This document shows, piece by piece, positions 15,901-27,900 of a DNA stretch of 64,000 nt. Within the stretch, counting starts at the first letter, position 1. Every line of letters begins with the position of its first letter. The translations under genes and the position numbers were made by a program. The notes under the pieces are model-generated. The model worked only from the letters and a program-made list of their open reading frames with translations, did not search any database and was not told where the DNA came from. This stretch comes from Endomychus coccineus (taxonomy: Eukaryota > Arthropoda > Insecta > Coleoptera > Endomychidae). The stretch spans positions 57,176,039 to 57,240,038 of the forward strand of contig OY294067.1 in assembly GCA_958510875.1 (NCBI GenBank). The letters are read 5' to 3'.

Positions 15901-18900
15901 TAGGTTAGTTTATGTTATAAAAGGTGTTTCAATGAGAACTGACTGTTTTGTAATTATCAAAATAAAATGAAAATGGTTACGAATTTTGTATGGTGTAATA
16001 ATCTGAAAAATTATTACTTTTGGGTTCCTTGGAATGATCAGTCTCGTAACTCTATATCTCCTATCCGGAGCACCGACTTCTTAGCCAGTCAGGAAGTATG
16101 CTTAGCAACGTGAGCATACCACGAGAACAGTGCAACTTTTTCTCTTAGTCAGAGGAAATTCACGTGGAGTTGAAAAGAGTCATCATGGACTGTTTTTGCA
16201 CCTAGTCCAGTAGATATACTGGGCTAGTTCTACGACAAAAACCAAGATGGCGGCCATAGGGGTGTCGGTCCGGTGATAAGGATCGGTTGTTTGTGAAGAG
16301 TATACTTCGTAGACTCGACCGACTCATGCGGCTCGCAAGCGACTTCGATAAATGAAAGGTCGGAGATCATCGGCTACAACGTTTCGTGCGACTTCGCAGA
16401 CTCGTTCTAGTTTGCGGGTGTTAATATCGATGAGGACAGTATAGCTCAAGATGAAGTGTGTGGCGGTCGACATTCAGAGAAACCATAGAGCTACAGAGCA
16501 CAACCAGTCACAACCATGGAGCTAAAGGTTATAGAGCTAACCTGAGTCGCAGACTGGAAGAGGTGTCATGGTGTCTGTCATGTGGGTCTTCAACGAGGTG
16601 TCTTGGTGTCTACCGTGTGAACTGTCATGGAGGATCTTTCATAGCGTGTGTTTCCATATTTTTGATATGAGGAAAATCAATATGATGCATACAAATTGGG
16701 GTGGGGAGAACATCAAGCTATAGCTTCATGTGTATCAAAATACACAATGATTTTGACGAGTGAGTGGTGTTTTATTGAATTGAAGATCCGGCGACCATCG
16801 TTCACGAACGATGATGACGTCACTGCTCCAAGCCAATGACAGTAACTGATTCAATCCGGCGACCATAGTTCACGAACGATGATGACGTCATCATCGTTCA
16901 CGAACTATGATGGGCTAATGAGGAATAAAATGTGAATAATCATAATGATTGTATCACATTTATACACATGTTTTTTCGCATGATTCAACACATGCTTTAA
17001 CATTCAGACAAGTGTTTCAACATTCAGACACGTGTTTCAACATTCAGACACGTGTTTCAACATTCAGACACGTGTTTCAACATTCAGACACGTGTTTCAA
17101 CATTCAGACACGTGTTCCAGCATTCATACCTATTTAACATGTATTTGATACCTGATTTTGACAGAACCGTAGAAGCACCTAACCGCGCGATCAGACATAC
17201 ACAATATAACATCATCATCTAGTATATAAACAAATGCTTATTAACATATGTTCCAGTATGATTTCGATTCGCCTTCAGGCATGATGAAGATTGTTAAGCA
17301 AAAAGACTCGTTGAGTATTATGAACTTAGGGTCAAGCAATGAGAATGTTGAACAACCACAACGTCACAGCTCTCTGCTGCCTAATACTCTACGAACAATA
17401 ATCTGTGGTCCAAGTAATTGTGGGAAAACAAATGTGATGTTATCTCTATTGTTAGATGCAAACGGTCTGAAATTTGAAAACGTGTACATATATTCAAAGT
17501 CTTTACACCAACCAAAATACCAGTTACTAAAGGAGACATTGAAGAAAATTGAGGGGCTTGGATATTTTCCTTGTACCGAAAGTGATGAGGTCATAGACCC
17601 CACAGAAGCGAGGCCCAATTCAATCATAATATTCGATGACGTGATGTTTGAGAAACAGGAGAAAATTCGTGCTTATTTTTCAAGAGGGAGACACAACTCA
17701 ATTGATAGTTTCTATCTTTGCCAGTCTTTTGCTAAATGTCCAAAACATGGATTGCGCGACAATGCCAATTGCTTGATTATTTTCAAACAGGATGAGCTCA
17801 ATTTGAAACATATATTCACCGATCATATAAGTACCGACATGTCACTCGAAAAATTCAAAGAGATATGTAGCGTATGTTGGAAAGATAAATATGGATTCCT
17901 TATGATAAACAAAGACTGTGATATGAACAAAGGACGTTATCGCAAAGGTTTTGATAGTTATATATACATCTAACATGTATATATACTTTCATTTGAAATA
18001 GACAACCCGCTCAGCATGGACGTGGGTGTGAGTAACACGCTTAAAGAAAAACAACAATTGAAGAAAAAAATTTGGGAGTTAGCAAACGTTGTGAGGAAAA
18101 AATATATGGCTGTGAAATTGGGTAAAGCTGAAAATGATGAGATTCTAGATAATATGTTCAGGAATGTATCTAAACCTCTGGAGGAAATTGCGAAAAATGC
18201 TGAAATAATCAAACAAAATTCGTTGGTTAAACCTAAAAGTATTGTTTCTACAGCAACACAAATGGAGACCATACCAATCCCAAATATTGTAACTGAAGGG
18301 GAAGAGTTCGTATATAACCCCCAAAATACTGAGGAGGATGTGTTTACCCTCGAACCTACTATCGATCAGATTCGTGAAGAATTCAGAAAACATAAGAAAG
18401 ATAATGCAGAGGCTACAGAGGAGTTTCTGCAACAATACCCCACATTAGCACGTTATTACTTGGAAGGATTCCTATTGGATGATGATGTCAAGAAATACGA
18501 TGATAGAATGGGATTGCAATATAATTCAACTTTAGACAAATGGTTCATGGGTAATCAACCTATAGAAATTGATAGTGAGAGTAATATAATTATCAAGGGT
18601 ACTCCGTTCAAGGGTACCACAGGACTGTATAATTTGATATTTTACAGAGATGTTCTACCTGATACTTACACTGTGGAAGATGGGAAAAATTACAGTCAAA
18701 TGATGGAAATGACTAGTGCCCATAGGCGTAATAACGATCCAGCTGATCGAATAAGAAACATTGTAAAATACAAAAATGTACTGAAACCTTTGATTAATTC
18801 CATGAAAAGACCCAGAGCCAAAACATACACTGGAAGTGCATATATCAAAAATGATATGCTTGAATATAACGAGAAACATATCGAATATGTTTATTGGGAT

Positions 18901-21900
18901 GACGTTAACGAAATTGTGGATAGACTGAGACTTCTTGTTGCATCCTCGCATGCAGGTAACCATAATCATCACAATGAGATAATCTCTATAATAGAAGAAT
19001 TGATAGAGGCAGGGGTAATTGAACAAAAACCAGGTGTAAGACAAATTCATCTCAGTTATAAAGATGGTTTCAATGGATAAGTTTGGCAGAGCCTCCTCTT
19101 CCATGTGGATATATGATACAAATGTATTTAATAATAATTTCAAACAAGTTCACGGACAAGGATTATTCCTAACGAGCGATGGAAGTTATGATATGGAAAA
19201 TCGTAGATTGTGCAACGTAAAATCACCGAATGATGATGGAGATGTTGCAAATAAAGTATATGTTGATAAATTAACACACAAACTGAATCTGAAAACGGAA
19301 ACCAGTCTTAAAGATACCTTCAATGTTAGGGTTGATAATTTGATCAAAGATATCAACAAGGATCTGGATGAACATAACTTAACGAATGACAAGGTTATTC
19401 TCAACATTGATAAACATCTGATGGACATTCAGAATAAATATAATGGAATGGGGATCTATATAAAATCAGAGTATAAAACAATCAGTGATAGTGTGAGGGA
19501 AAACAGAAATGAATTGAAAGAGATCAATAACACATTTAACAGTGTGAACATGCGTCTAAATGACATTACTAGTAAAGTGGAGGCGTTAGAACGACGGATG
19601 ACATCTGTGGAACCTTCTAAGAAGAGACCCTCATCATCCACAACAACAAAGCAGGGCTCTGTGAAACGTATATCTCCAAATCCTGTGAATATACCCAAAA
19701 AATTAATTCTACACTAGATTTCCACATTGATAAGATGAGTAGAGAACAAGTTGTGCATGAGCTTCATAAGCCGAGTAGGAAGAATTTCAAACGACGCAGA
19801 ACGATCATAAAAGGTTTGGATGATTTGTGGCAAATGGATCTGGCAGAAATGGGTAATTACGCTCGTGAAAATAGAGGATTCAAATACATTTTGATTATGA
19901 TCGATTGTTTCTCGAAATTTCTATGGACACGCCCGCTGAAAACGAAATCAGCCGAAGAAGTTCGGAAAGCGGTCAGTTCTATATTGCTAGAAGGACATCG
20001 TAAGCCTAGGAATCTGCAAAGCGACCAGGGAAAAGAATTCTTCAATAAACACTTTAACGATCTAATGAAGAAACATAATATCAATCATTATAATACGTAT
20101 AGTGTGAAAAAAGCAGCCATTGCTGAACGTGTCATTCGAACGTTAAAGGAATCGCTCTACAAACATTTCAGTCTCAGCGGGAAATACAAATGGCTTGATA
20201 TACTTGAAGAAACCACAGAAAAATATAATAAACGTAAACATAGTACTATAAATATGGCTCCAATAAAAGTGACGAAACAGATTGAGAGCGAGATATTGAA
20301 GCGATCCTACTCACACATCAAGTTAGCTCTGCCTCACAAATACAACGTAGGAGATGTGGTACGAATAAGTAAGGCTAAACATATTTTTGAGAAGGGATTT
20401 ACGCCCAATTGGAGTACGGAATTATCTAAAATCATCAAAGTAAAAATTACCAACCCGGTCACATATCTACTAGAAGATATGACCAACGCACCAATCAGCG
20501 GCTGTTTCTACGAGGAAGAATTACAGAAAACAAAACAACCCGATGTGTATTTAGTCGAAAAAATATTACGGAAGAGGAGGGGTCAACAGTATGTGAAATG
20601 GTTGGGTCTAGATAATAATCACAACAGTTGGATCAATAATTCGGATCTCGTTCAATGAATCCATCATTGATCATTTGGAGATTATTAGGAACAAACAAAT
20701 AGCTGGAATATTATTGACTCGAGGGTATGGTTATTATAATAGAACAATAATTCCGTGAATATGAGGGTGAATCAAGAGTGAAGATTATAATATTTGAAAC
20801 ATATATTGTTAAGATTATACTTAAGTCTTTTGTATTGGGAAAATTTTGAAATTAATAAAAAATATTATTTTGAGATCTTTGATCTTTCTCCCTCCCCTCG
20901 TTGAATAACGGTGCAATCTTGAATTTTCATCAGTCTGTATGGAAGCGTACGTAGGAGAAGGTGTTCTCAATACGCTTATAAACAAGCTCCCGTTTGAACT
21001 TCATATTCCTGGTTATCAATTCTGTGGTCCCGGTACAAAATTAGAAGAACGGTTGAGAAGAGGAGATTCAGGTATCAATCCACTCGATAAAGCTTGCCGC
21101 CAACACGATATTTCATATCTGCGAAACGCTAGTTTGGAAGGACGTCACGAGGCGGATAAAATATTAGAGAACGCTGCTTGGCAACGTGTCAAATCTAAAG
21201 ACACAAAATTTGGAGAAAGGATTGCCGCTTTCGGTGTAAATAAAATTATGAAGGCAAAGAGGAAATTGGGAATGGGTATGAGAAAGAAGGTTGGGTTCGG
21301 AAGTGCAATTGTCGATGGGGTGAGAAAAGTTATGAAGAATAAGTTTGACTCATCCAATCTGAAGAAAACATCCCAAACAGCGTTGAAAGTTGCACGAAAA
21401 CAATTCAAAAAAGCGGGTGGTCGGAAAAATGTTCGGTTACCAAGAGTAATTCCTATTCCAAAGACTGGAGGATTTCTACCATTTTTAATACCTCTGTTTG
21501 CCGGCTTATCAGCTGCTGGAGCATTGGCGGGGGGTGGTGCAGGCATCGCTAAGGCCGTCAACGACAGCAAAGCAGCTCGGAAAACCTTGGAGGAAACGGA
21601 AAGACATAATAAAACAATGGAAGCTATAGCTTTGGGGAAACAAGGATCTGGTCTATATTTGAAAAAGTATCGCAAAGGTCTTGGTCTATATTTAAATAAA
21701 CATCCAAAAAACTGTCAGTAAACCTACCCAGAAGACCTCTGACCGATCTCGATCTACGAAAACTAGCAAAAACTCTGAAAATTCCCCATTTTAGAGGAGT
21801 ATTTATGCGTGATGAACTACCATCCAACGGACCATGGAAAAACGAGCGTGGAATAGTTAATTTAGATAGCTCGGAAAATGGAGGCACTCACTGGGTTGGG

Positions 21901-24900
21901 TTTAATAAAGTCGGTGATACAGTTTTATATTATGATAGTTTTGGCAATTTACGCCCCCCCTCGCGAACTAGTGGATTATTTCGAAAAGTGTAAGATATTA
22001 TTCAATCACGATAATTTTCAACAATATAACACTTATAATTGTGGTCAGTTATGTTTAGATTTCCTCTCTAACTCTTCAGTTGTGCTCGACTAACCCTGCA
22101 TTTATTAGTATATAAATAGATTGTTGGTAAAGTTTGCATCAATCATGTCTCAGACGTTCACTATCACGGGTAAGAGCTCCCGCTTATCTGTAGATTTCCA
22201 CCCACCTATAGAACTAGATCCTCATTCATATTATTCTATCGCACTTGTTGGCTTGCATAGGTACAATAGCATTCCGAACATTGAAGAAGGTTTTAATAAA
22301 TTTTATTATAAAAATGTGAAGGGTGAGGAAGAAGTAGTAACTATACCTACGGGGTCCTACGAGTTGACAGACATCGAGGATTTCATACAAAGTGCAGTTT
22401 GTGGGATAGGAGTGAAGCAAGAAGAACGTGACCGGAAATTATCAATAAAATCTAACAACAACACTCTACACACAGAGCTGAAGAGTGATTTTGAAGTGAA
22501 TTTTATTCCTAAAGATAGTATAAGCGAACTGTTGGTATTCAGCGAAAAGAAATTGACATCTCGCGAACTACACGTATCTGATCGACCTATAAACATAATC
22601 AAAGTTCAAACAATACGTGTTGAGTGTAACTTAACCGCAGGAGCATATTATAACAATAAGATAGCTCATACGATATATGAGTTCTCACCTCTTGTACCAC
22701 CTGGGTTTTCCATTGATATAGAGCCGAAGAATCTTATTTATCTACCGGTCATCAGCAAGACGTCATTCGATAACATCACGCTGAATATTTTAGATCAGAA
22801 TTGGAAACCGGTAAATTTTCGTGGAGAAGAAATTATTATACGATTGGAATTGAAAAAGATCGTTAGGGATTATACCTCACAACAATAAATAATAATCCAA
22901 TACTCACCACCACTCATTATATGAAAGGAATTCAACTGAGAAGGTTGCAGTAGCCATCACTTGAGAACATGGGTTTAGATTTCAGAAATAAAAGACATCC
23001 CCATAGTGGTCATCAGTCATTATCTACAACGAGCTCGAAGGAGAAGGTTGCTACTGCAGCATTATCATTGGAGAATATAAATTTTTTGAAGTTCCTTGGT
23101 TACAATGTCAGAAAAACTTCAAATATTCAACGAGCCAAACTTCATTGAAGACATCATCCGAGAAGAAACTCACACCTACTATCCACACACAACATCTTTT
23201 GGCAACAGCGATGAAGTTGAGATATTAATCAATCAACAAGACGTGTTGGTAGATTTGGCATCGTCTGCTTTATTCATCGAGGCAGAATTCCAGCCAGAAG
23301 CAAGTGGTGATGGTGAATGTAAACTAACGAATAATTTCGGAGCGTTTCTCTTCGAATATATCAGTTATGAATTGAATGGGAAAGGGATAGACAAAGTACG
23401 TGATCCTGGTATTGTCAGCACCATCAGAGCTTATCTAACATATTCCAAACATGAATCTATACCTCTAGCTATTTCTGGATGGTCATTTAAGGATGCACTG
23501 AGTTCAGTCTACAATAATAAAATCAATTTATGGATACCGTTGAATTTTCTACTAGGCCTATTCATTGACTATAACAAAGTTTTGAGTGGAAAACATAAGT
23601 TGCGCTTGATAAGGTCTCGAACCGATAACAATTGCTATACTAATAGCACAGGCACGAAGAGGGCTAAAATAAATGTGAAGACGATAGCATTAAAAGTGCG
23701 ACATGTGTTTCCAAGTGATCAAGTTAAATCTCAAATGTTGGAGAATTTGAGTGCTGAGAAGCCTATTTTGATTCCATTCCGTAGTTGGGATCTGCATGAA
23801 AATCCGTTGATGAAGGAGAGCACTCGCGACATTTGGGCTGTTAAAACATCAATGAATTTGGAACGCCCCAGATATGTGATTCTAGCTTTCCAAACTGATC
23901 GAAAAAATAATCCTGTGAAGCACAGTGCATATTTCGATAATATAAACTTGCTAAATGTAAAATTATACTTGAATTCAGAGTGTTATCCCTATGAAGCAAT
24001 GAAATTGAATTTCACCGACCAGCAATACATGGAAGCATACCAGATGTACTATGATTTCCAGAAATCATTTTCAAATAAAATAATAAGCGAGCCCATGTTG
24101 GATTATATAGCATTCAAGAATAGAGCAATTTTTGTTATTGATTGTTCAAAACAGAACGATGCTATAAAGTCATCAACAGTTGACGTCAAACTAGAGATGG
24201 AAAGTTTCCTGAATTTCCCCAAAAACACCAGGGCTTATTGCATCATCATTAACGACCGTATAATGGAGTATTCCCCGATTACAGGATCAGTTCGGAGTTT
24301 AGTGTGAAGAGCCAGGTCATGAATCATAATGTTATTATTTTAATTACAAATGATGTACTATCAAAATGTATTCTTCCCAATAAATGTTATCATTATTATT
24401 TTTGGCATTTTATTTCTCAAACAGGGTGGCAGTGCTGTAATTATTCAGCGTTCATAGTTGTTCACAAACTGCTAGCAGGTATCCATTATGTCACGTGCTT
24501 AACACGTGTCTGAAACACGTGTCTGAATGTTGAAGCACGTGTCTGGATACTGAAGCACGTGTCTGAAACACGTGTCTGCATGTTGAAGCACGTGTTGAAT
24601 CACGCGATAAAACATGTGCATGAATGCATTACAATCATTATAATTATTCACATCTACCCATCATCGTTCGTAAACTATGGTCGCCGGATTGAATCAGTTA
24701 CTGTCATTGGCTTGGAGCAGTGACGTCATCATCGTTCGTGAACGATGGTCGCCGGATCTTCAATTCAATAAAACACCACTCACTCGTCAAAATCATTGTG
24801 TATTTTGATACACATGAAGCTATAGCTTGATGTTCTCCCCACCCCAATTTGTATGCATCATATTGATTTTCCTCATATCAAAAATATGGAAACACACGCT

Positions 24901-27900
24901 ATGAAAGATCCTCCATGACAGTTCACACGGTAGACACCAAGACACCTCGTTGAAGACCCACATGACAGACACCATGACACCTCTTCCAGTCTGCGACTCA
25001 GGTTAGCTCTATAACCTTTAGCTCTATGGTTGTGACTGGTTGTGCTCTGTAGCTCTATGGTTTCTCTGAATGTCGACCGCCACACACTTCATCTTGAGCT
25101 ATACTGTCCTCATCGATATTAACACCCGCAAACTAGAACGAGTCTGCGAAGTCGCACGAAACGTTGTAGCCGATGATCTCCGACCTTTCATTTATCGAAG
25201 TCGCTTGCGAGCCGCATGAGTCGGTCGAGTCGAACTGGTGGCGCCATCTCCACGTATCAGTCTATACCTTTTGAACCAAAGGTACAGAATGCTTCGTAGA
25301 GGTGCTTCGCCCCTCCATTAAGCAATCTGTACCTTAGGTTCGTCATGACAGCTGTCACTTGGTGGTGACACCTCTACGAAGCAATCTGTACCTTAGGTCC
25401 ACCATGACAGCTGTCACGAGGTGGCGACACCTCCACGAAGCAATCTGTACCTTAGGTTCGTCATGACAGCTGTCATATGGTGGCGACACCTCTACAAAGC
25501 AATCTGTACCTTAGGTCCACCATGACAGCTGTCATGTGGTTGCGACATCTCTACGAAGCAATCTGTACCTTAGGTTCGCCATGACAGCTGTCACTTGGTG
25601 GCGACACCTCTACGAAGCAATCTGTACCATAGGTCCACCATGACAGCTGTCACGTGGTGGCGACACCTCTACAACGCAATCATGACAGTTGGACCTTATG
25701 GTCACCATGACAGTTGAACCTTATGGTCGCCATGACAGTTGGACCTTATGGTCGCCATGACAGCTGTACCTTATGGTTGCCATGACAGTTGGATCTTATG
25801 GTCGCCATGACAGCTGTACCTTAGGGCCGCCATGCTGTCATGTGTTAGTCACGTGACCCTGTGACACACTTTTTGCACACACCCTGTATACTCTTTCATG
25901 TGACACACTTTTTGCACGCACCCTGTATACTCTTTACAAACAACCGATCCTTATCACCGGACCGACACCCCTATGGCCGCCATCTTGGTTTTTGTCGTAG
26001 AACTAGCCCAGTATATCTACTTAGTCCTATTCCTATAGATCGCTTCAATAACATATGGGCGGGGTCCGCCCCCGGTATTCTAAATGAAACAAATTTTCTA
26101 AGTTTTGTGCGTGGGGTTGGCCCCTGCCTCAATGGTTTCGTAAAAATTAAGTTAGTTCGGTAAATTAATTTTCTTCTCCAGCCTGTTTATACTCCCTGAT
26201 GAGGAATAATCCATGGTTCGCAATAATTCAAGTCAGATATTTCTCACCTACATTCCACACAAAGTAATTTAAATGTTTTTAATTTTGTTCTTATTGTTGT
26301 CGAGATAATATCTCTATAAAGTTGTAAGTAATTTTCTAGTCAAGGCAAGTAGAATGTCAACCCATATTAACCTTTGTTCTTAATATCATATTTTTTGAAA
26401 TCAATTAATATCCCTGTGTGTCAGTATTGTAACAGATTAAATTAAAGTAATTAGATAGAGATCAAGTTGATTTATCAAGTTGTGTTCATATAAGTGTACA
26501 GTGAACGGAGAAATTCTTAAAGTTCGATGGACTCCAAGAGAGCGCAACCTACAATAAATTTTACTTGTAGTATTGTAAAATCTGTAGGTAGCTTGCGTAG
26601 GGGTAGTTTGTAGCCTTGAATTGGCTCGTAGTTAGAACCCAGTTGTGAAATTGAACGTCGTATTTGTGCAACAGGAGTTATTTATTCCACATTATATTCT
26701 ATATTAAACCTGTATTCTGCGCGATTTTGTGAATGCAAACTGGCTAATTATTTCCTATGAATAAAGTTAATTATGGAAAAAATCGGAATATGGCGCTCCT
26801 CTATTATTTGATGATGGAGCAAGCGTCGTCATCTGCGTTACCCCCACCTCCGCTGCTAATTTACCCAGAAATCAGGGAAGAAAGAACTCTCCACCTTTCA
26901 AATATTTGACCTGTATATGATTATTGAATCATCTATTTTCCCAAACCATAAACCAAATTCAATTGGGATTCAAAGCTTCCCTATAATTCCACGTTTTACT
27001 CTCCATCCATTTGAATTGGTTTCTTAGTACGAGTATGTTTTTACTGTATATGTTATATAGATATTCACACTTGATCTTTAAGATTTTCCTCAATAAATTT
27101 ATTAATATTGGACTATTAACTTCCCCTACTCTAGATACTGGAATGTGTTACGGATAACCTATTGATTGGAGTAGTTAGTCCTCATCAACACCATAATACC
27201 CCCCCCCCTCCCATACGTAATGGCCCTTCGTTGTCTTCCCAACTATTCCGGATGCCTTGGAGATAGATGAACAAGACCACCAAGTGAACCACAACACCAA
27301 TGGGAGGTTCTTCCTATTCCTAAATCCTGGCTGTGCTAGCTCAAAGCTTCTACAATATGAACTCTCCAATGTTGGCAAGGATCAGCATATGGTCTGCTTT
27401 CTCGTCCTCTTTTTCTCATGCTACACACGGTGGGTTATTCGACCTATCATAGTGCCTTATTATTGTCTTCTGTTATGGCATGATAGAATTTGATGCTTGG
27501 CTTATGGTGTTTCCGATCAATTCTACTTTCGAGGTGATCCTGTTTCTACTCATAGTTAGTATCATGCTCCGATGTATTCTCCGCTGATTTTAAGATCAAT
27601 AATTCATTGGACACTATGGACTTTAGCATAGATTTCCGATTGAAGTAATGTTTTCCCTTCTATTCATTCATGGCTACTGTATTTCTGCTCCGTCTATTGA
27701 TTTGTTTTCTCTTCATAACAATATAATTCGTGTAGAACTGTATGAAGAGTATGATGTAAAACACTGATATTTACCTGTCCCGCTACGCAGTAACATAGCA
27801 TCAAAATTATTCTCAATGGAACTTTTGCTTTATAACATCGATGTGTGAAAAATCTATGAGCTCCACCTGTGACGCCAAAGCCTCCAACGAAGCCAATCCA

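What the first reader, a model, noticed from the sequence alone, without database searches (positions are those of the whole stretch)
16209..26021. Complete-looking Polinton that lacks DNA polymerase B
Both ends, the 6-bp target duplication, integrase, packaging ATPase, penton, capsid, protease, PLA2 protein and fibre-like gene are present in 9.8 kb, yet no frame resembles the protein-primed PolB that defines self-synthesising Polintons. The genes are tightly packed and inverted repeats abut both sides, so no obvious deletion scar is seen. It could be a virion-making satellite that borrows a polymerase from another Polinton or the host, or a lineage with a different replication mode. This is the best candidate for an undescribed system.
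Basis: partly seen in the sequence, partly recalled or inferred. Interest (0 to 1): 0.88.

Follow-up and report, generated by a model that had tools for sequence, protein, structure and literature searches.

The report
Polymerase-less viruses hitchhiking on Polintons
This animal genome, probably an insect's, holds a family of virus-like elements that carry capsid, packaging and integration genes but no DNA polymerase gene, and they share their ends and a close integrase with other, polymerase-carrying elements in the same genome, which likely copy them, so they look like capsid-making satellites of Polintons.

Summary
Window 16209-26021 is a complete insertion: exact 16-bp ends, long inverted repeats, 6-bp duplication TAGTCC, genes for packaging ATPase, integrase, PLA2, penton and major capsid protein. 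37 PolB queries (34 different) find nothing in the window. Corrections: this copy's protease lies broken over two frames; the 354-aa gene belongs to a family of unknown function (DUF8207).

It is not a lone deletion. The host genome (906 Mb) holds 20 exact copies of the end, forming 8 elements with perfect, different 6-bp duplications. Four are this family (A, a lower bound); none of the four has a PolB gene. In 17 of 18 gene comparisons between three A loci dN/dS is below 1. One A locus keeps a 17-aa PolB-like relic behind the capsid gene, so PolB was probably lost by an ancestor.

Three other elements with the same ends form family B (18-23 kb); two of three carry a PolB frame. A and B capsids are 40% identical, integrases 84%, and both families carry both variants of the terminal sequence. 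I infer that A is a capsid-encoding satellite replicated by a PolB supplied in trans, most likely from B-type elements. The helper step is untested. New variant of a known kind.

The parts
16203..16208 (.). left copy of the 6-bp target site duplication TAGTCC
   Evidence: read; paired
16209..16884 (+). left terminal inverted repeat (97 nt + 573 nt), starts AGTAGATATACTGGGC, end type 1
16930..17129 (+). left subterminal stretch with an array of 20-bp units (ACACGTGTTTCAACATTCAG), imperfect match to the right side
17248..17973 (+). packaging ATPase, 241 aa; Walker A GPSNCGKT, Walker B IIIFDD (motif names recalled)
   Evidence: Pfam Pox_A32 6.4e-6; motifs
18016..19080 (+). DUF8207 protein (PF26634 is the precomputed domain of its relatives), 354 aa, unknown function; position matches ORF2 of Sf Maverick 1/2
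   Evidence: 151 homologues; model pLDDT 78, no confident fold match
19064..19717 (+). coiled-coil, fibre-like protein, 217 aa
   Evidence: weak hits only: Filament 0.0027; minor head PHROG 6.5e-5, tail-fibre PHROG 5.4e-4
19735..20658 (+). retrovirus-type integrase, 307 aa, D35, D97, E131, chromodomain-like C-end
   Evidence: Pfam rve 5.8e-15; Chromo 4e-4, under its cut-off; spacing
20939..21721 (+). parvovirus-type phospholipase A2 protein, 260 aa
   Evidence: Pfam PF08398 1.8e-10
21700..22090 (+). adenain-like cysteine protease, broken in this copy: the gene changes frame (21700-21990, then 21866-22090); one-frame versions exist at other loci
   Evidence: Peptidase_C5 0.014, under cut-off, for the first piece; one-frame gene at C31 and in both C1:148M sets
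22145..22888 (+). penton (minor capsid) protein, 247 aa
23105..24307 (+). double jelly-roll major capsid protein, 400 aa
   Evidence: Pfam PF21738 3.5e-89; 351 homologues
24308..24502 (+). region behind the MCP where the A copies differ from each other (likely site of PolB loss); AATAAA inside
24503..24653 (-). right subterminal stretch with 20-bp-type units
24659..26021 (-). right terminal inverted repeat, with tandem arrays at about 25232-25924
26022..26027 (.). right copy of the target site duplication TAGTCC
   Evidence: read; paired

Best explanation
The window holds one member of a family of PolB-less Polinton-related elements (family A) that likely behaves as a capsid-encoding satellite, its DNA predicted to be copied by the PolB of other Polintons (family B) in the same genome that share its ends and a close integrase. 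Shown: A has four loci with different perfect target duplications, none with a PolB gene; B has the same ends and two of its three copies carry a PolB frame; both families carry both end variants. Inferred: an ancestor of A lost PolB behind the capsid gene and kept or acquired ends and an integrase matched to B. When a B-type Polinton is active, its PolB would recognise the ends of A and copy A by protein priming, A's own ATPase and capsid would package the copy, and the shared type of integrase would insert it. The present window copy may not complete this alone, as its protease gene is broken.
For: (1) 20 exact ends, 0 for the reversed control pattern; 8 pairs with perfect, different 6-bp TSDs. 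(2) Family A: window, C31:241413, C1:217363445 and C1:148335954 (two tandem gene sets); proteins other than the broken protease 91-99.5% identical to the window. (3) 0 of 4 A loci have a PolB frame; 37 PolB queries (34 different) hit no A piece but a 17-aa stretch in the two C1:148M sets. (4) Two of three B copies (C2:126.6M, C2:133.5M) have a frame of about 1070 aa, read in two adjoining pieces each. That of C2:126.6M has six PolB motifs in order, 0 of 217026 shuffles (the patterns were written after reading the frame), and an endonuclease VII domain, as weakly reported for Sf Maverick POLB (PMC5803895 Table 3). (5) INT A versus B 84%, MCP 40%, penton 42%, ATPase 56%, PLA2 54%. In Sf Maverick 1 versus 2 INT (60%) stands close to ATP (59%), ORF7 (59%) and PRO (57%) (PMC5803895 Table 2), so INT and ends look exchanged here. 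(6) End type 1 is in A (window, C31) and B (C2:126.6M, C6); type 2 in A (C1:217M, C1:148M) and B (C2:133.5M). The window's first 97 nt are 98-99% identical to the type 1 B copies, its first 88 nt 88% to the type 2 A copies. (7) Silent changes exceed the neutral share between A copies: 25 of 52, 58 of 107 and 39.5 of 83, p 1e-4, 2e-11 and 1e-6 with an assumed 24% silent share; dN/dS below 1 in 17 of 18 gene comparisons. (8) Arms differ by 4 in 1516 at C31 and 17 in 1483 at C1:217M, so these two A insertions look young.
Against: No replication was observed. Shared ends could come from conversion among resident copies. The PolB of B was identified by motifs (names recalled, patterns post hoc) and EndoVII; Pfam PF03175 did not hit it, it has no blastp or phmmer match to 30 PF03175-type frames and profile comparison was weak (E 0.0018, probability 15%). 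The genome has many other PolB elements (201 PF03175 matches, 76 of 1489 candidates scored) that could be the helper. No A copy examined is wholly intact: the window protease is broken; the coiled coil changes frame at C31 and C1:217M, where the protease also looks interrupted; INT has a stop in both C1:148M sets and the coiled coil in the one set where it was counted. C1:148M arms are only 86% alike over 553 nt, so not all A insertions look young. One gene comparison gave dN/dS 1.18 (PLA2, C31 versus C1:217M). Constraint may partly predate PolB loss.
Confidence: 0.6

Rival explanations
1. Family A is a set of defective deletion derivatives of a PolB-bearing Polinton that amplified passively, like MITE-type non-autonomous elements; capsid genes are passengers and no virion is made.
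For: A PolB-like relic sits behind the MCP at C1:148M; A loci differ in what follows the MCP; every A locus has at least one broken gene.
Against: Six genes (ATPase, DUF8207, integrase, PLA2, penton, MCP) are free of stops in window, C31 and C1:217M and show an excess of silent changes between copies; passengers should decay.
Confidence: 0.25
2. A replicates without any PolB of its kind, using the host DNA polymerase (for example by hairpin ends or host repair after integration-linked excision).
For: No replication gene was recognised in A; the DUF8207 protein has no confident fold match, so a hidden role cannot be excluded.
Against: A keeps ends of the type found on PolB-bearing B, which host replication would not require.
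Confidence: 0.1
3. The absence of PolB is an assembly artefact: a collapsed or missing piece.
For: Tandem arrays and microsatellites are present in several loci; C6 has 200 N; the two C1:148M sets may be an assembly duplication.
Against: Four separate loci with TSDs show the same absence; the window has no N and the sequence behind the MCP in window and C31 matches at 86% over 409 nt.
Confidence: 0.05

Closest known systems
Insect Mavericks/Polintons, Sf Maverick 1 and 2 (PMC5803895; part 1 of section 11 and passages seen)
   Same: Same row of genes by the paper's table: ATP, ORF2, INT, PLA2 'CAP', PRO, ORF7 of 404 aa; INT with chromodomain hit; adenovirus-like PRO hit.
   Different: They carry POLB (1162 aa), ORF6 (148 aa) and ORF8 (158 aa); family A in the window has no PolB and ends after the MCP. 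That ORF7 equals our MCP rests on size and place and was not tested by sequence; the paper itself did not name a double jelly-roll gene in them.
Vertebrate Mavericks (PMC8097293; passages seen)
   Same: 6-bp TSD, TIRs, intronless ORFs, core genes under purifying selection.
   Different: Intact ones were 12,723-24,620 bp with protein-primed PolB among their conserved genes; the window element is 9,813 bp without PolB.
Polinton-like viruses (PMC11071308; passages seen)
   Same: Capsid-making, Polinton-type PolB mostly absent.
   Different: PLVs mostly lack the retrovirus-type integrase and carry other replication proteins; A has the integrase and no recognised replication protein.
Virophages (mavirus; PMC11071308 passages, otherwise recalled)
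   Same: Virion-making parasite that depends on another virus; the penton fold matches mavirus.
   Different: Mavirus has its own pPolB; the proposed helper of A is another Polinton, not a giant virus.

Membership tests
[quoted passage not shown]
   0 hits in the window from 37 PolB queries (34 different) at E 0.01; no Pfam polymerase hit
Autonomous (self-synthesising) Polinton/Maverick | retrovirus-type integrase | tested here: met
   rve 5.8e-15, D35 D97 E131
Autonomous (self-synthesising) Polinton/Maverick | 6-bp TSD and TIRs | tested here: met
Autonomous (self-synthesising) Polinton/Maverick | packaging ATPase, DJR MCP and penton | tested here: met
Autonomous (self-synthesising) Polinton/Maverick | adenain/Ulp1-like protease | tested here: inconclusive
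   gene present but over two frames in the window; weak Peptidase_C5 hit 0.014; one frame of 130 aa at C31 and in both C1:148M sets
Polinton-like viruses (PLV) | other replication protein, mostly without retrovirus-type integrase | tested here: not met
   integrase present, no replication protein recognised
Satellite of a Polinton (works like) | ends matched to a PolB-bearing element in the same genome | tested here: met
Satellite of a Polinton (works like) | replication depends on that element's PolB | not testable with these tools
   needs an experiment
Virophage | replicates in a giant virus factory | not testable with these tools
   no data on co-infection

The most novel reading that the evidence does not exclude
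Polintons of an animal have their own satellite viruses: a lineage that gave up its DNA polymerase, kept the capsid and packaging set, shares a helper Polinton's ends and integrase by recombination, and spreads as virions or insertions at the helper's expense, a Polinton-on-Polinton counterpart of the virophages.
Probability: 0.45. Interest if true: 0.87.

Novelty: new variant of a known kind. Interest (0 to 1): 0.74.

Why it matters
PolB is the gene by which self-synthesising Polintons are defined. A multi-copy family that lacks PolB, still shows constraint on its virion genes and shares ends and a close integrase with a PolB-bearing family in one genome makes helper-dependent replication among animal Polintons directly testable. 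It would also show how integrase and end modules move between capsid lineages, and why surveys that look for PolB miss such elements. I did not see such a pair described in the listings of my eight paper searches of an open-access library, nor in the passages I read; subscription papers were not searched and the adintovirus paper was not held.

Tried and rejected

Counts dropped: the constraint test used 3 of 4 A loci (C1:148M left out) and 6 of 8 genes (coiled coil and protease left out because they are broken in some copies). The MCP tree used the 120 listed of 351 homologues. The motif shuffle test was run on the C2:126.6M frame only.
Full report

Host. The window lies in a 906-Mb genome of 129 contigs without a name. 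Among the 120 MCP relatives listed of 351, those with names are beetles and ants (orders recalled), and a quick tree puts the window MCP on the 80-row side that holds Sitophilus, Tribolium and other beetles, with no strong support for its closest kin. A desaturase-like exon and retrotransposon pieces were recognised by eye. I take the host as an insect, perhaps a beetle; this is inference.

Copies. The exact end occurs 20 times, with 0 for the reversed control. Eight pairs have perfect 6-bp TSDs: TAGTCC, AACGCC, CATGTT, TAAAAA, TAAGGA, GACGGC, AACTGA, GATGAG. Four loci belong to the window's family (A): window; C31:241413-252332; C1:217363445-217376188; C1:148335954-148371529, which is 35.6 kb and holds two nearly identical tandem gene sets. 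Three belong to family B: C2:126.6M, C2:133.5M, C6:4.62M, 18-23 kb, with another gene layout. One (C2:80.15M, 52 kb) was not resolved.

PolB. In B, two of three copies (C2:126.6M, C2:133.5M) have a frame of about 1070 aa near the right end, read in two adjoining pieces each. In C2:126.6M it carries FDFE, HNLSGYD, YLKTDV, DVCNLY, NAIFG and YTDTDS in this order; 0 of 217026 shuffles did. The names of these as exonuclease and polymerase motifs are recalled, and the patterns were written after reading the frame. It has an endonuclease VII domain (Pfam 1.8e-5; PHROG 1.8e-5), as weakly reported for POLB of Sf Mavericks (PMC5803895 Table 3). Against: PF03175 does not hit it. The C6 copy showed neither PolB nor integrase and has 200 N. 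In A, 0 of 4 loci have a PolB gene (about 340 nt of C1:148M unread). In C1:148M, 150-200 nt behind the MCP stop of both sets, 17 codons match PolB at 82% (E 5e-5 against the short regions; 0.001 against all pieces). I read this as a relic of a lost PolB; a captured scrap or chance is possible.

Family trait or accident. The A loci have different target sites, so they inserted separately. The sequence right behind the MCP is shared for about 100-155 nt in all four and then differs: inverted repeat in window and C31, two other frames at C1:217M (one with an MSV199 domain), the relic and further sequence at C1:148M. Between window, C31 and C1:217M silent changes are 25 of 52, 58 of 107 and 39.5 of 83, above the assumed neutral 24% (p 1e-4, 2e-11, 1e-6); dN/dS is below 1 in 17 of 18 gene comparisons, the exception being PLA2 between C31 and C1:217M at 1.18. 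The pairs are not independent and part of the constraint may predate PolB loss. Divergence differs along the element: MCP dS window-C31 0.004 but penton 0.049, while penton C31-C1:217M is 0.019, which suggests recombination between A copies. Arms of the repeats are near identical in C31 (4 of 1516) and C1:217M (17 of 1483); in C1:148M they are 86% over 553 nt, and in B 92-97% over 614-668 nt. So two A insertions look younger than these B copies and one does not; the tandem arrays make arm ages rough.

Link between A and B. Identity A to B: MCP 40%, penton 42%, PLA2 54%, ATPase 56%, DUF8207 33%, but INT 84% (dS about 0.67, dN 0.09). In two Maverick lineages of Spodoptera INT (60%) is close to ATP (59%), ORF7 (59%) and PRO (57%) (PMC5803895 Table 2). 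Two end variants exist, and each occurs in both families; the window's first 97 nt match the type 1 B copies at 98-99%, its first 88 nt the type 2 A copies at 88%. The simplest reading is exchange of ends and integrase between A and B, which fits a shared replication and integration system.

How it works (inferred). A PolB from B, or from a similar element, starts at the shared ends and copies A; A's ATPase and capsid proteins package it; the integrase inserts it with a 6-bp duplication. Steps shown: ends, TSDs, genes, PolB frame in B. Steps not shown: expression, copying in trans, particles. No A copy examined is wholly intact, so a live A source was not seen.

Known or new. The gene row is that of insect Mavericks (PMC5803895) without PolB. 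Because the defining PolB was tested and not met, I do not file A as an autonomous Polinton; it works like a satellite of one. PLVs differ by mostly lacking the integrase and having other replication proteins (PMC11071308, passages seen). Eight paper searches listed no such pair; the library lacks most subscription papers.

Noticed in passing
G000:C1:148335954-148371529 (L064, L066, L068, L069): Two tandem family A gene sets about 12.6 kb apart, 99.6% alike over 854 nt behind the MCP, inside one pair of ends; real tandem copy or assembly duplication.
   Followed up: partly
L064:3-887 (+): Open frame with a threonine-rich linker that by eye looks like a matrix metalloproteinase piece, inside the C1:148M element; possible captured host gene.
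   Followed up: no
L023:2942-3685 (-) and L023:2012-2542 (+): The C1:217M copy carries an MSV199-domain frame (3e-5) and a 177-aa frame 45% like a B gene, between MCP and inverted repeat.
   Followed up: partly
G000:C2:80204937, 80210304, 80215658: Three right ends with the same flank at about 5.3-kb spacing: tandem duplication of an element end.
   Followed up: no
L011 (G000:C2:117827106): An unpaired end whose outside flank is a PolB frame 67% like that of B: one element inserted in or next to another's PolB.
   Followed up: partly
G000: Many PF03175-type PolB frames, apparently of two kinds by the part of the profile matched best, a number of them open over 1000 aa: the genome is rich in other PolB elements.
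   Followed up: no
window 25232-25924: Tandem arrays of 59-bp, 25-bp and 39-bp units in the right repeat only; C31 has such arrays in both arms.
   Followed up: partly
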